A stretch of 45,087 bases of DNA from assembly GCA_013297825.1 (NCBI GenBank), contig JAAFIN010000008.1, forward strand, positions 1 to 45,087, read 5' to 3'. Shown piece after piece: positions 26,514-31,199 of the stretch (positions within the stretch are counted from its first letter, which is position 1; the number at the start of each line of letters is the position of its first letter). The position numbers and the translations under genes were made by a program. The notes beneath the pieces are model-generated. The model did not search any database. It was not told the origin of the DNA and saw nothing but the letters and a program-made list of their open reading frames with translations. Source of the stretch: Cytophagales bacterium. Its GTDB lineage: Bacteria; Bacteroidota; Bacteroidia; Cytophagales; Microscillaceae.

Positions 26514-27368
26514 TTAAAATACTGTGTTACAATTTGGCAAAAAAGATTTAATTTTTTGTTTTTCTTTGGTAGGAATAAGATTTTCGTATAAATACAATTC
26601 TTTTAAATTTGTTAATTTTACGATTTTTTTCAACACAGTAGTAAATTTATTTGCACCTAAATATAATCTTTGTAAGTTTTTTAGGTTACTGATTTCTTTA
26701 GGCAAAGTAGTTAATTTATTATTATTCAAGTGTAACCTTTGCAAATTCCCCAATTCTCCAATACTTTCAGGTAATGCAATTAATTGGTTATATTGTAAAT
26801 CCAACATTTCTAATTTTTTTAATCCTTCAATGTCTTTGGGTAAAATGGCAATATGGTTTTTCTCTAAATACAATGATTTTAAATTTTTTAATTCCCCAAT
26901 TTCTTTGGGTAAAGTTGTTAATTCATTTGAAATCAAATATAATTCTTGTAAATTATATAACATTCCAATTTCTTTAGGTAAAACTTTTAATAAATTATTC
27001 CCCAAACTTAGTGATTTTAAATTTTTAAAACTCCAAATTTCATTTGGTAAAACAAGTAATTTATTAAAAGATAAATCTAACTCTTGCAAATTTTTAAACT
27101 CCGAAATTTCTTTAGGTAAAGTAGTAAATTGATTTTCATTCAAATATAAATGTTGCAAATTTTTCAATTCTCCAATTTCTTTTGGTAATTCTTTTAAATT
27201 TTTTTCTGACAAATTAAGTTTATAAACCTTCAAAGGTTCTTTCAAAGCCTCATTCAAATCTGTATATTCTTTTTCATTAGCAAGTGTTGTGCTATCCAAT
27301 AATTGCCCTTGTGCATAAACACACACATACACACACATAAAAAGAAGTAAGCAAAATAGTTTTTTCAT
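26514..27368 (-). CDS. Secreted leucine-rich repeat protein
   Basis: 284 residues: signal peptide about 1-19 (ending VYAQ), a short linker, then about nine to ten leucine-rich repeats of 23 residues (pattern [23 protein letters not shown]) to near the C-terminus, ending FLPNCNTVF. Such solenoids bind proteins or glycans; the partner is unknown. Repeats are regular enough that recombination between units could change their number. The cysteine near the end may cap the solenoid. There is no type IX secretion-like C-terminal domain and no lipobox. Monocistronic on the minus strand. Confidence 0.9.
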
Positions 27369-27556
27369 ATTGTTTTTAGGTCTAAAAATTAAAAAATGGT
27401 TTAAATTTGGCTTAAAATTACGTTTTTAGAATTATTGTATCAAAAAAATTGCTATTAAATTCATACATCAAAAAAACATTTTCCCATAAAAATTGTCAGA
27501 CAACCAAAAAAAATGCTTTTGCAACCGCAAAAATAGCACAAAAAACCTTATAAAAA

Positions 27557-27720
27557 CCTAATGCTTTTATAATTCTAAATGCTTGTGCAGTTTTTTTTAC
27601 CAACAACCCATCAACAAATAAGCCTCTGCAATATGTTGTTGGTATTTGATAACAGATGTATATTTGCATTGTACTTGCATTTTTATAAAAACACAACAAT
27701 AGTGCAGTTTTTTCGCTTGG
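27557..27720 (+). repeat. Dispersed hairpin element, copy A (diverged)
   Basis: It shares several blocks with the reverse complement of 30968-31185: cttttataattc, atgcttgtgca, accaacaac, aagcctctgcaat and ttttttcgcttgg. accaacaac and gttgttggt form a hairpin around the conserved aagcctctgcaat. The terminal repeats of the other copy are not recognisable here. The whole gap 27369-27813 holds only this element and the terminator behind it. Confidence 0.75.
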
Positions 27721-27754
27721 AAACACCCATAAAAAGCAAAATAACAGAGAAAAA

Positions 27755-27813: not shown

Positions 27814-28494
27814 TTATCTTGCAACTTTAAAATTAAAAGCACCGTTTTGGGTGGCTGTCCATATACGTAACCATACAGGCAATAGACTTTCTGTACCTCT
27901 TGCAGTACTCATATCACCCAAATCCAGCATTTCGGATTCTTTCCACCCAAAACTTTTTAATAAATTGATGACTACATTTTTTGCATCAGCATAATTACCA
28001 CTCAAAAACACTGTGCTATCTTCTGATAACATACGTGGATTTAACATTACACCATTATACATAGTATTGAGTGATTTCACAAATTTTGCGGTTGGGAAAG
28101 TTTCCTGCAATACTTCACCCAAAGAAGTTGTATTGCTCAAAAATAAAGTTGGAAGTCCTCCACTACTAAAGTCAAGTGGATTGGTAATGTCCAAAATCAC
28201 TTTTCCGTCAATGGTTTTGCCTGCGAATTGCAAAGCATCTTTTGCACCCTCGCCTTTTGTTACCAATATGACCAAATCCGCTTCTTCCGCAGCAGTTTCA
28301 AAAGGCAACAATTTTACATTTGGATTGATTGCTAAAAATTCGCTTATGGTTGGCGTGCCATAACGGTCTTTTTCGGTATTTGCCAATGTTCTTTCTACAT
28401 TTCTTGTACCTAATGTTACAGTGTGTTGGAGGGCTACAAGTTTGGTAGCAAATGCTTGCCCTACGCTTCCTGTACCAAAAACTGAGATTTTCAT
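27814..28494 (-). CDS. NADP oxidoreductase, coenzyme F420-dependent type
   Basis: 226 residues. The N-terminal Rossmann fold (GTGSVGQAFATKL at 7-19) and LVILVTKGEGAKDAL, VILDITNPLDFSSGG, FVKSLNTMY place it in the F420-dependent NADP reductase/6-phosphogluconate dehydrogenase-like superfamily. In Bacteroidota, which generally do not make F420, such proteins are probably NADPH-dependent reductases of another substrate. Single gene on the minus strand, upstream of the LRR gene but separated by repeat DNA. The N-terminal ATG fits the start of the fold. Confidence 0.85.
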   Translation of the reverse strand: MKISVFGTGSVGQAFATKLVALQHTVTLGTRNVERTLANTEKDRYGTPTISEFLAINPNVKLLPFETAAEEADLVILVTKGEGAKDALQFAGKTIDGKVILDITNPLDFSSGGLPTLFLSNTTSLGEVLQETFPTAKFVKSLNTMYNGVMLNPRMLSEDSTVFLSGNYADAKNVVINLLKSFGWKESEMLDLGDMSTARGTESLLPVWLRIWTATQNGAFNFKVAR

Positions 28495-28553
28495 ATTGTT
28501 ATTTTTTATTTAGTTTTTTAAAAGATTTTTTTGTGAATAATTGAGGGAATTTA

Positions 28554-28595
28554 GCACGCAGATAACGCAGATTGGGCGGATTTACGCGGATTTTT
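28554..28595 (+). repeat. cacgcagataacgcagatt intergenic repeat
   Basis: cacgcagataacgcagatt then gcggatttacgcggattttt. A related string is at 43410-43443 (cacgcagataacacagatt). Confidence 0.7.
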
Positions 28596-28609
28596 ATTAC
28601 TTTTTTAAT

Positions 28610-29632
28610 TTAAAACCATTTTGCTTTTGCGAGTGCTTGGTCTTGTATCAAACTAAAAGTATTAGGATACACCAATGGCGGTTTTGTGAGTTCATCTATC
28701 ATTTGGATATCCTCTTTGCTAAGTTCCAAACCTATTGCTTGCAAATTTGCATCAAGTTGTTCCAATTTGCTCACGCCAATAATTACACTACTTACGACTT
28801 TTTTGGCAAGCAACCACGCCAATGAAATCGCAATGATATTTGTATTATATTTTTGGGTGAGAATTTGCAATTTTTCTATCACTTTATAACCTAATTCTCT
28901 ATCAAATAATCCCAAATCAAAACTATTTAATCGTCCATCTTGTGGAGCAGGGTTTTCTTTGGTGTATTTTCCTGATAAAAATCCACTACTTAATGGACTC
29001 CAAACCATCATACCAACTTTGTGGTGCAAACTCATTGGCACGATTTCATTTTCAACTTCTCTATTCAAAATAGAATAGTGCATTTGTGAAGCTACAAATG
29101 GCGTGTAATTATGGTCTTTTTGGTATTGCAACATTGTGGAGGCTTTCCACGCTTGGTAATTAGAAAAACCAATATGTCGCACTTTGCCATTATTCACCAA
29201 ATTTTCTAAGGTTTTTAAAGTTTCTTCAATGGGCGTAATAGGGTCATCATTGTGCAAAAGCAATACATCTATATAATCCGTATTCAGATTTTTTAGGCTT
29301 AATTCAACTTGCTGAATAAGGTGTTTTGTGCCTACACCTGCATTAAAAGGTTGATTTCCTGCTCTAAAAGATATTTTTGTGGCAATGATTGCGTCTTGTC
29401 TTTTTCCTTCCAATGTTTTACCCAAAATCCTTTCGCTTTCACCACCGCCATACATATCCGCAGTATCAAAAAAATTGATACCATTTTCCATAGCTTTATT
29501 TGTTACTTGGGTAGCTTCTTTCAAATCTAAAGTACCTTTAAATCCTCCAAAGTCCCATTTACCAAAAGTCATTGCACCCAAACTTAATTCTGAAACGATT
29601 AAACCTGAATTGCCTAATTGTCTGTAATTCAT
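28610..29632 (-). CDS. Aldo/keto reductase
   Basis: 340 residues from the ATG at 29632. An NADPH-dependent (alpha/beta)8 barrel. The tetrad is visible: D56 and Y61 in NFFDTADMYGGGE, K86 in IATKISF, H127 in LLLHNDD. SLGAMTFGKWDFGG and IGFSNYQAWK also fit. The frame is open 35 codons further upstream (to 29737), but that extension is hydrophobic AT-rich text without family similarity and it would cross the promoter, so MNYRQLGNSGL is the better start. The AraC regulator lies directly upstream on the same strand, suggesting it controls this gene. Substrate unknown. Confidence 0.93.
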   Translation of the reverse strand: MNYRQLGNSGLIVSELSLGAMTFGKWDFGGFKGTLDLKEATQVTNKAMENGINFFDTADMYGGGESERILGKTLEGKRQDAIIATKISFRAGNQPFNAGVGTKHLIQQVELSLKNLNTDYIDVLLLHNDDPITPIEETLKTLENLVNNGKVRHIGFSNYQAWKASTMLQYQKDHNYTPFVASQMHYSILNREVENEIVPMSLHHKVGMMVWSPLSSGFLSGKYTKENPAPQDGRLNSFDLGLFDRELGYKVIEKLQILTQKYNTNIIAISLAWLLAKKVVSSVIIGVSKLEQLDANLQAIGLELSKEDIQMIDELTKPPLVYPNTFSLIQDQALAKAKWF

Positions 29633-29699
29633 ATTTTTTAAAATTTTTGTAACACACACTTTCAATGTGTAATTTTGATAAATTGTAATATTTATGATG

Positions 29700-29707
29700 C
29701 AAAGGTA
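29700..29707 (-). promoter_or_regulatory. Candidate -7 box of the aldo/keto reductase gene
   Basis: Minus strand TACCTTTG, an exact TAnnTTTG match about 68 bases before the chosen start codon. It lies inside the upstream frame extension, which supports the shorter start. Confidence 0.5.
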
Positions 29708-29857
29708 AAGCAGATAAAATATTTTTTTGTAGTTCAATTATTGATAAAAATGGTAAATTTGGGACTGAAAACACTCACAATTACTTAACAGTTATCAATG
29801 GCAAAGCCTTGATAATTAAAAAAATATTATTTGGTTTTTTCAGCTTCACTATTTTCT

Positions 29858-30772
29858 TTATTTTTTTTCCGCTAAAAATTGTCTTTTAAATTGCATAGGA
29901 GAATAATTGGTAAGTTTTTTAAAAAACTTACCAAAATTAGCAGTATCACTATAATTGAGTTGAAAAGCAATTTCTGCTACATCAAAATCTGTATAACACA
30001 GAAGCATTTTTGCCTCTGACAAAACCCTTTCATTGATGATTTGTAAGGCACTTTTATCACTAAGTTTTGAAATGGTTTTTGATAAATAGTTTGCACTTAC
30101 ATTCATTATTTGGGCGTATTCTTCTACGGTTCTTTTTTCTAAATAAAATTTATTAACAAGTTGAATATATTGCCTATAAAGAATCTCCTGCGAGGATTGA
30201 AAACTCTGTTCTAATTGAATTTGGGTTTGTGTATATTGTTTTAATTCTTGTAAAAGTGCCAAAAATCTATAACTTGCCAACTCATATTTATAATCTGAAC
30301 ACTTAAAATACGCCTCAAAAACATCTATAAAACTTTTGGAAAATGTAATAAATTTTTCAGTAGTAATACTAAAAAAATTCACTTTCATCACATCAAAAAA
30401 TGGAAAATTTTGCTCAAAATCAGGCTTAAAAAAATCAAATAATTCTTTTTGAAAATAAATAATATATCCATTTGCTTTTGGACTTCTGTTAAAACTATAC
30501 ACTTGTCCAGGCATTTGAAACGCCAAAAAAGAATCTAATTTATTAAGCAGAATGGTATCATAGGTTATTTCACTAATGTCTGCTTGCGTAATAAGGCTTA
30601 AAAAATAAAAATCTTTTCTGTAAGGTGCTTTTACCGCAATCACATTTGGGTCTTGTGCTTCAAGTTTGAGGCAATAAAAATTGGAGTTTTGGGTGTGGTG
30701 TGTGTTGCTGATACTTTCCAAAAAACTATTGATGTCCTTGTAATGCGGAATATGCGTATTAAGATTGTTCAT
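29858..30772 (-). CDS. AraC family transcriptional regulator
   Basis: 304 residues. An N-terminal cupin-like sensing region (about 1-190; note QMPGQVYSFNRSPKANGYIIYF) and a C-terminal AraC DNA-binding domain with two helix-turn-helix units (about 205-302): VEEYAQIMNVSANYLSKTISKLSDKSALQIINERVLSEAKMLL and DVAEIAFQLNYSDTANFGKFFKKLTNYSPMQFKRQ. Such regulators commonly act on neighbouring genes; the aldo/keto reductase next downstream is the natural target, about 225 bases away, where its own promoter lies. The inducer is unknown. Confidence 0.95.
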   Translation of the reverse strand: MNNLNTHIPHYKDINSFLESISNTHHTQNSNFYCLKLEAQDPNVIAVKAPYRKDFYFLSLITQADISEITYDTILLNKLDSFLAFQMPGQVYSFNRSPKANGYIIYFQKELFDFFKPDFEQNFPFFDVMKVNFFSITTEKFITFSKSFIDVFEAYFKCSDYKYELASYRFLALLQELKQYTQTQIQLEQSFQSSQEILYRQYIQLVNKFYLEKRTVEEYAQIMNVSANYLSKTISKLSDKSALQIINERVLSEAKMLLCYTDFDVAEIAFQLNYSDTANFGKFFKKLTNYSPMQFKRQFLAEKK

Positions 30773-30888: not shown

Positions 30889-30967
30889 CAATTTTTTTTA
30901 GAACTATACACTTTTTAAATACACATTTATTAAAAATACAGGTTAAATAATTAAAATATTTTATTCT

Positions 30968-31185
30968 TTGTTGGTCTTACCAAGCAAAAAAGTCTACACC
31001 GTTGTTGTTTGTTTAGAAATACAAAGATAGCATTTTTACAAATGTAAAAGCATTTTTCGTTACCAATAACGCATTGCAGAGGCTTGTTTATTGAATTAGT
31101 TGTTGGTGAAAAAATATGCACAAGCATTGGGAATTATAAAAGTATTAGATTTTTAGTTGTAAGAGTATTTTTCTAAGACCAACAA
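30968..31185. mobile_element. Non-coding element with 12-bp terminal inverted repeats (copy B)
   Basis: It begins ttgttggtctta and ends with the exact reverse complement taagaccaacaa. The inside has further hairpins (accaataac with gttgttggt around gcattgcagaggctt; gcatttttac with gtaaaagc). A diverged relative lies at 27557-27720 in the opposite orientation. No ORF of note, no transposase, and no clear target duplication. MITE-like by shape. It occupies much of the 519-base gap 30773-31291. Confidence 0.7.
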
Positions 31186-31199
31186 TGGAGAAAAACACA

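What the first reader, a model, noticed from the sequence alone, without database searches (positions are those of the whole stretch)
30968..31185. 218-bp non-coding element with 12-bp terminal inverted repeats and a diverged inverted copy
Ends ttgttggtctta and taagaccaacaa are exact inverted repeats. The internal blocks are shared with 27557-27720 in opposite orientation, including a hairpin whose loop (aagcctctgcaat) is conserved while the flanks vary. Conserved loops with variable flanks suggest a structured DNA or RNA, moved by a transposase or recombinase in trans. The two copies bracket three genes (27814-30772).
Basis: seen in the sequence. Interest (0 to 1): 0.62.

Follow-up and report, generated by a model that had tools for sequence, protein, structure and literature searches.

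The report
Hairpin-pair mobile repeat between genes
The sequence is a decayed copy of a small "passenger" mobile repeat made of two DNA hairpins, almost certainly spread by a known kind of single-strand DNA enzyme (RAYT), and in this bacterium dozens of copies sit, mostly facing the same way, between short genes that look like defences against rival bacteria's toxins.

Summary
The feature is real. The 218-bp element and its inverted partner are shortened, diverged members of a family with about 59 recognisable copies in this genome (full length about 290 bp). The core is two consecutive hairpins with the same foot, GTTGTTGGTG/CACCAACAAC, in mirror orientation, with variable but self-complementary distal stems; covariation is strong. 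Related elements with the same ends occur in other Microscillaceae and across Bacteroidota. A blind search for genes lying between two such ends returned REP-associated tyrosine transposases (RAYTs; NCBIfam NF047646) in three genomes. RAYTs of one clade are flanked by these hairpins in about ten genomes, including a same-family genome in which hairpin 1-RAYT-hairpin 2 has this element's layout. There are no target-site duplications. So it is a REPIN: a non-autonomous REP pair mobilised in trans by a RAYT, very probably of the Bacteroidetes subclass 2.6 (group 5). The matching RAYT was not found in this draft genome, so the family is probably orphaned here. Unexpectedly, two thirds of the copies are clustered, mostly co-oriented with their neighbours, between short genes, a few of them recognisable immunity genes (Imm49, Barstar, Tri1).

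The parts
30957..31198 (+). REPIN copy 1, whole profile match (internally shortened; this family is about 290 bp when full length)
   Evidence: nhmmer 189.7 bits, model positions 15-323 of 335
30968..30979 (+). extra left terminus (ttgttggtctta), pairs with 31174-31185
   Evidence: sequence; the C/G change against the family consensus is present on both sides
31001..31070 (+). hairpin 1, decayed: foot GTTGTTG (31001-31007) and arm GCATTTTTCGTTACCAATAAC (31050-31070)
   Evidence: alignment with full-length copies
31099..31188 (+). hairpin 2: foot GTTGTTGGTG (31099-31108) ... TAAGACCAACAATGG (31174-31188)
   Evidence: single-strand DNA fold of 30962-31193, z -2.26
27509..27745 (-). REPIN copy 2, inverted and diverged
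   Evidence: nhmmer 187.8 bits; arms shared with copy 1
27632..27702 (-). hairpin 1 of copy 2
   Evidence: read from sequence and alignment
27608..27631 (-). spacer of copy 2 (aagcctctgcaat)
27497..27607 (-). hairpin 2 of copy 2, outer foot degraded
27814..28494 (-). bracketed gene: NADP/F420-type oxidoreductase (PF03807); ordinary gene, not part of the element
28610..29626 (-). bracketed gene: aldo/keto reductase (PF00248); not part of the element
29858..30772 (-). bracketed gene: AraC-type regulator (PF12833); not part of the element

Best explanation
The element is a REPIN: a short non-autonomous mobile DNA made of two REP hairpins in inverted orientation. It was spread by a RAYT, a Y1/HUH single-strand DNA transposase that reads the hairpin feet, most likely of the Bacteroidetes-specific subclass 2.6 (RAYT group 5). 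Each hairpin has a fixed 10-bp foot (GTTGTTGGTG/CACCAACAAC) and a lineage-specific distal stem and loop. As a single strand, for example on the lagging-strand template, the unit can fold as two hairpins or as one outer stem closing a multi-way junction. The RAYT would cut at the feet, excise or copy the unit as single-stranded DNA and insert it between genes without a target duplication. Shown here: copies, architecture, covariation, no detected target-site duplication, and physical association of the hairpins with one RAYT clade elsewhere, including the same family. Inferred: cutting, single-strand transfer, and that mobility has stopped here because the cognate RAYT is missing. The window copies are old and decayed. 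In this genome the family has become concentrated between short immunity-like genes in one orientation; direct repeats of about 290 bp there would also let cassettes be gained or lost by homologous recombination (inferred).
For: About 59 copies in own genome. Same ends in related genera, where the hairpins differ in distal stem and loop. Widespread in Bacteroidota. Covariation: 97.4% paired cells, 33 double-sided changes against 9.9 +/- 2.4, 0/500 shuffles; score 0.321 against 0.090. Own arms more complementary than swapped arms, 9.84 against 7.53 +/- 0.22, maximum 8.28 of 1000. Single-strand DNA fold z -6.05 for a full copy and -8.54 for a relative. Blind search for ORFs between inverted ends found homologous RAYTs in three genomes (L171 has a hairpin on each side). 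RAYT identity: NF047646 at 3e-19 to 3e-25, two of five clade members over the cut-off, and PDB TnpArep 4ER8 at E=0.0016. Of 61 RAYTs, the nine with these hairpins within 250 bp on both sides all fall in one clade of 29, and none of the other 32 has them on both sides. Same-family L300 shows hairpin 1-RAYT-hairpin 2 with matching stem arms. Cytophaga aurantiaca L305 has an intact RAYT with tandem extended two-hairpin copies beside it. No target-site duplications (29 copies; 2.48 against 2.68 in shuffles).
Against: No clade member in the own genome: the best match is a partial, distant RAYT on C208, flanked by different palindromes. The draft is 95% complete and breaks at these repeats, so absence is not certain. 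Stems and loops are much longer than in classical REPs, and the usual GTAG-type guide tetranucleotide is replaced by GCC/GG(A/C). The nine-in-29 result is partly circular: three of the nine seeded the search profile and the genomes were chosen for the motif; without the three it is six of 26 against none of 32, about p=0.006 by hand. Random spread of REPINs does not by itself explain the orientation bias.
Confidence: 0.86

Rival explanations
1. Integron-like recombination site: the repeat is the attC-like end of mobile gene cassettes, and a tyrosine integrase builds the arrays.
For: One gene or a small block per interval and one orientation in arrays; an integrase with a partial match to the integron model lies near the end of contig C343.
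Against: That integrase scores 101.7 and 96.9 bits in two pieces against a cut-off of 265 and carries none of the repeats; none of the five tyrosine recombinase matches lies on a contig where these repeats were found. Elements occur singly and in tandem outside arrays, in other genera too. The gene repeatedly found between two ends is a RAYT.
Confidence: 0.05
2. Classical MITE moved by a DDE transposase recognising the 12-21-bp terminal inverted repeats.
For: Terminal inverted repeats, many copies, non-coding.
Against: No target-site duplications; the search for genes between the ends returned RAYTs and no DDE transposase; ends are part of hairpins whose distal stems covary.
Confidence: 0.04
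3. A structured RNA or terminator kept for a function after genes, not a mobile element.
For: Mostly downstream of co-oriented genes (42 of 53); strong fold.
Against: Lineage-specific amplification, tandem and truncated copies, isolated copies in either orientation, ends shared with RAYT-carrying units. A secondary role as terminator or RNA stabiliser, known for other REPs, is not excluded.
Confidence: 0.05

Closest known systems
REPINs / BIMEs and RAYTs (PMC3116915; PMC2817692)
   Same: REP pair in inverted orientation, intergenic, many copies, folds as single strand, cognate RAYT flanked by the same hairpins, sister RAYTs carrying other palindromes
   Different: Much longer (about 165-290 bp), two-part stems with lineage-specific distal stem and long loops, no GTAG guide, RAYT not found in this genome
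TnpAREP subclass 2.6 / RAYT group 5 of Bacteroidetes (PMC6006769)
   Same: Phylum, protein length (about 165-195 aa in most members), motifs NH[ILVF]H and YIHxNP, flanked by 'atypical secondary structures' with copies elsewhere in the genome
   Different: The part of the paper read here gives no sequence for those structures; membership is by motif and context, not by a joint tree
IS200/IS605 elements
   Same: Y1/HUH enzyme, end hairpins, no target duplication
   Different: No IS200-type transposase associated; enzyme is REP-type
rAID orphan-immunity arrays of Bacteroidales (PMC12247911)
   Same: Rows of short co-oriented immunity-like genes with conserved intergenic sequence
   Different: No recombinase found on the repeat-bearing contigs; the intergenic sequence is a REPIN; different order (Cytophagales)

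Membership tests
REPIN | two REP hairpins in inverted orientation forming one repeated unit | tested here: met
REPIN | cognate RAYT gene flanked by the same REPs | tested here: met
   met in other Bacteroidota and in the same family (G014, L300; that RAYT copy carries two in-frame stops). In the own genome: not found
REPIN | canonical GT[AG]G guide tetranucleotide at the hairpin foot | tested here: not met
   foot is GCCG/CGG(A/C); non-canonical structures are reported for subclass 2.6 (PMC6006769), so this is a variant, not an exclusion
REPIN | transposition by RAYT demonstrated | not testable with these tools
   needs biochemistry
RAYT subclass 2.6 / group 5 | REP-associated tyrosine transposase with NH[LIV]H, W[Q], YIH[QN]NP, about 179 aa, Bacteroidetes | tested here: met
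   NF047646 hits, two of five clade members over cut-off; motifs NH[ILVF]H, W followed by Q/K/E/H/R, YIHxNP, most members 161-213 aa. x in YIHxNP and the residue after W vary more than the published consensus; not placed in a joint tree
Integron attC | IntI integrase linked to the array | tested here: not met
DDE-type MITE | target-site duplication | tested here: not met
   29 copies
rAID system | XerD-like recombinase next to the immunity array | tested here: inconclusive
   none on the repeat-bearing contigs, but the arrays are broken at contig ends
rAID system | co-oriented orphan immunity genes with conserved intergenic motif | tested here: inconclusive
   orientation bias met; Imm49, Barstar and Tri1 among 50 neighbours, but most neighbours match no family, so immunity function of the whole array is inferred

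The most novel reading that the evidence does not exclude
The repeat is more than a parasite: in this lineage REPINs act as boundaries of immunity-gene cassettes. Genes lying between co-oriented two-hairpin units would be captured, moved or shuffled as single-stranded DNA by a RAYT, a HUH-based analogue of the integron for collecting toxin-immunity genes.
Probability: 0.1. Interest if true: 0.85.

Novelty: new variant of a known kind. Interest (0 to 1): 0.5.

Why it matters
It puts sequence and anatomy to the "atypical secondary structures" reported around the Bacteroidetes RAYT subclass, shows that REPIN stems can change wholesale between lineages while only the foot stays fixed (a natural test of what a RAYT recognises), and shows REPINs concentrated, in one orientation, between immunity-like genes, which makes a role for REPINs in the turnover of such gene rows testable.

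Tried and rejected
Integron attC (integrase scored; no linkage). Known RNA family (Rfam at evalue threshold, nothing near gathering). RAYTs present in the own genome as the source: they are flanked by other palindromes. First association test by Pfam Y1_Tnp alone missed the partner, because the clade scores weakly; the blind search between ends found it. The Taibaiella RAYT in L284 lies near the motif but has other repeats of its own around it. Plasmids and phages: no match to a minimal form. Literature search for the literal sequence gave only primers and unrelated texts. A first version of the arm-swapping test allowed too little shift and counted both strands; redone. Within own-genome copies alone the arm test is uninformative (8 distinct pairs).

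Full report
Observation. The 12-bp exact inverted repeats (30968-30979, 31174-31185) and the inverted partner at 27551-27644 are there. A search of the own genome (5.06 Mb, 362 contigs, 95% complete) gave 72 matches; a profile of full-length copies finds 59 matches of 60 bits or more in the contigs fetched, and 48 right ends match with at most 3 mismatches (the reversed control pattern gives 0). Full-length copies are about 290 bp with imperfect 21-bp ends; both window copies are internally shortened.

Anatomy. The core is two hairpins in a row: GTTGTTGg.TGT..GAAAAATGC...GCATTTTTCG.CACCAACAAC, a 24-28-nt spacer, then GTTGTTGGTG.GAAAAATGC...GCATTTTTCTAACACCAACAACGG. In other genera of the family only the feet and the ends are shared; one copy of Microscillaceae Prado074 (G004) has stems GAAATTACC/GGTAATTTC and GAAAAATGCCC/GGGCATTTTTC, others swap them, and two further genomes use GAAAAGTGCAG and GAAAGGTGGG stems. 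Counted on 16 distinct hairpins, 97.4% of cells pair, 33 cells changed on both sides against 9.9 in shuffles, and slid controls fall to 37-57%. Arms fit their own partner better than any other. Folded as single-stranded DNA, a G004 copy gives an outer stem closing three inner hairpins, z -8.54; a full own copy z -6.05; the decayed window copy z -2.26.

Who moves it. The pattern CACCAACAAC-N6..36-GTTGTTGGTG hits mostly Bacteroidota, many with a minimal form such as GCC[GTTGTTGGTG ttat CACCAACAAC]...[GTTGTTGGTG aaaa CACCAACAAC]GGC. This looks like a REP pair, so RAYTs were examined. Those of the own genome have their own, different palindromes. A blind search for ORFs between inverted ends then returned homologous RAYTs in L171 (Taibaiella lutea), L188 (Chitinophagaceae) and L270. 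A profile of these three finds clade members in many genomes. The hairpins flank them in L292-L296, L298, L299, L300 and L305 (L297 excepted), and on one side in L301. Of 61 RAYTs, the nine with the hairpins within 250 bp on both sides all lie in one clade of 29 (support 0.86), none among the other 32. Three of the nine seeded the profile and the genomes were chosen for the motif; without those three it is six of 26 against none of 32 (about p=0.006 by hand). Relatives within the clade are flanked by other palindromes, for example GTTGCTGGTC/GACCAGCAAC, ATTGCTTGTG and TTTGCAGGTG. NCBIfam names the proteins REP-associated tyrosine transposase, two of five over the cut-off; the only PDB relative is TnpArep 4ER8. 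In same-family genome G014, L300 reads [GCCGTTGTTGGTGTGTCGAAAAGTGCAG...CTGCACTTTTCGTCCACCAACAAC] RAYT [GTTGTTGGTGGACGAAAAGTGCAG...CTGCACTTTTCGACACACCAACAACGGC]: the layout of the short element with the gene still in place, although this RAYT has two in-frame stops. In C. aurantiaca an intact RAYT has copies of extended two-hairpin units on both sides. In the own genome no clade member was found; G004 holds two fragments related to the clade, with other palindromes beside them.

Insertion. Flanks of 29 well-bounded copies show no target-site duplication (longest match 2.48 against 2.68 in shuffles), as expected for Y1 single-strand transposition (established for IS200/IS605) and unlike most DDE elements.

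Where the copies are. 40 of 59 copies have another within 3 kb. The gene on the 5' side is co-oriented in 42 of 53 cases, on the 3' side in 33 of 42 (clustered copies are not independent). Intervals hold one or a few short genes. Among 50 neighbouring proteins at most about a quarter match Pfam; matches include Imm49, Barstar, ADP-ribosylarginine hydrolase (Tri1) and DUF6934, whereas seven of seven window genes around the finding match Pfam. Copies on the same contig are slightly more alike than copies on different contigs (0.908 against 0.870, permutation p 0.005), so local duplication or conversion contributes. This recalls the rAID immunity arrays of Bacteroidales, described as co-oriented short immunity genes with conserved intergenic motifs and a tyrosine recombinase (PMC12247911); no recombinase lies on the repeat-bearing contigs found here.

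Known kind. REPINs are defined in PMC3116915. PMC6006769 reports a Bacteroidetes-dominated TnpAREP subclass 2.6 (= RAYT group 5) with motifs NH[LIV]H, WQ, YIH[QN]NP and "atypical secondary structures" around the genes, copies of which occur elsewhere in the genome. The clade here fits by motif, length and phylum. The present element is therefore a new variant: an extended REPIN family, orphaned in this genome and concentrated between immunity-like genes.

The window copies. They are two decayed members in opposite orientation on either side of an oxidoreductase, an aldo/keto reductase and an AraC regulator. Nothing suggests that these move together; synteny in relatives was not tested.

Noticed in passing
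L031 3259-3604; L046 1110-1455; L042 121-452; L050 2477-2823; L039 10524-10868: A second intergenic repeat family (about 340 bp, palindromes CGTTGAAGTTTCCAACTTCAACG, GCGGTTTTCAACCGC, CGCCCAAAGGGCG, ATGCGAAGTATTTTACTTCGCAT) lies on many of the same contigs; related palindromes flank the RAYT on G000 C208, so this is probably that RAYT's own REPIN family.
   Followed up: partly
L032 (G000 C319), L031 (C213), L035 (C137), L034 (C129), L039 (C51), L099 (C142): Rows of short, mostly unassignable co-oriented genes; Imm49, Barstar and a Tri1-like ADP-ribosylarginine hydrolase are among the 50 neighbour proteins scanned from these and similar contigs: a candidate orphan-immunity array in a Cytophagales (Microscillaceae) genome.
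   Followed up: partly
L098 8261-9064 and 9276-9290 (G000 C343): A XerD/IntI-like integrase (363-aa frame) at a contig end, followed by AACGTTGGGCGTTAT, which resembles an integron core site; possibly a separate integron-like locus.
   Followed up: no
L224 1201-2210 (G000 C170): IS200/RAYT-type gene surrounded by repeats ACGCAGGGTATAAAACCCTGCGT: another REP family in the same genome.
   Followed up: no
L322 1700-2140 and L323 2200-2350 (G004 C241, C501): RAYT fragments with palindromes of the type TTGCCTGTGNNNNCACAGGCAA beside them, in tandem in L322.
   Followed up: no
L046 3070-4008 (G000 C245): IS110-family (RNA-guided) transposase next to a copy of the repeat.
   Followed up: no
window 26514-27368: Leucine-rich-repeat protein with a regular 69-bp repeat next to the second copy; LRR genes also occur beside other copies.
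   Followed up: no
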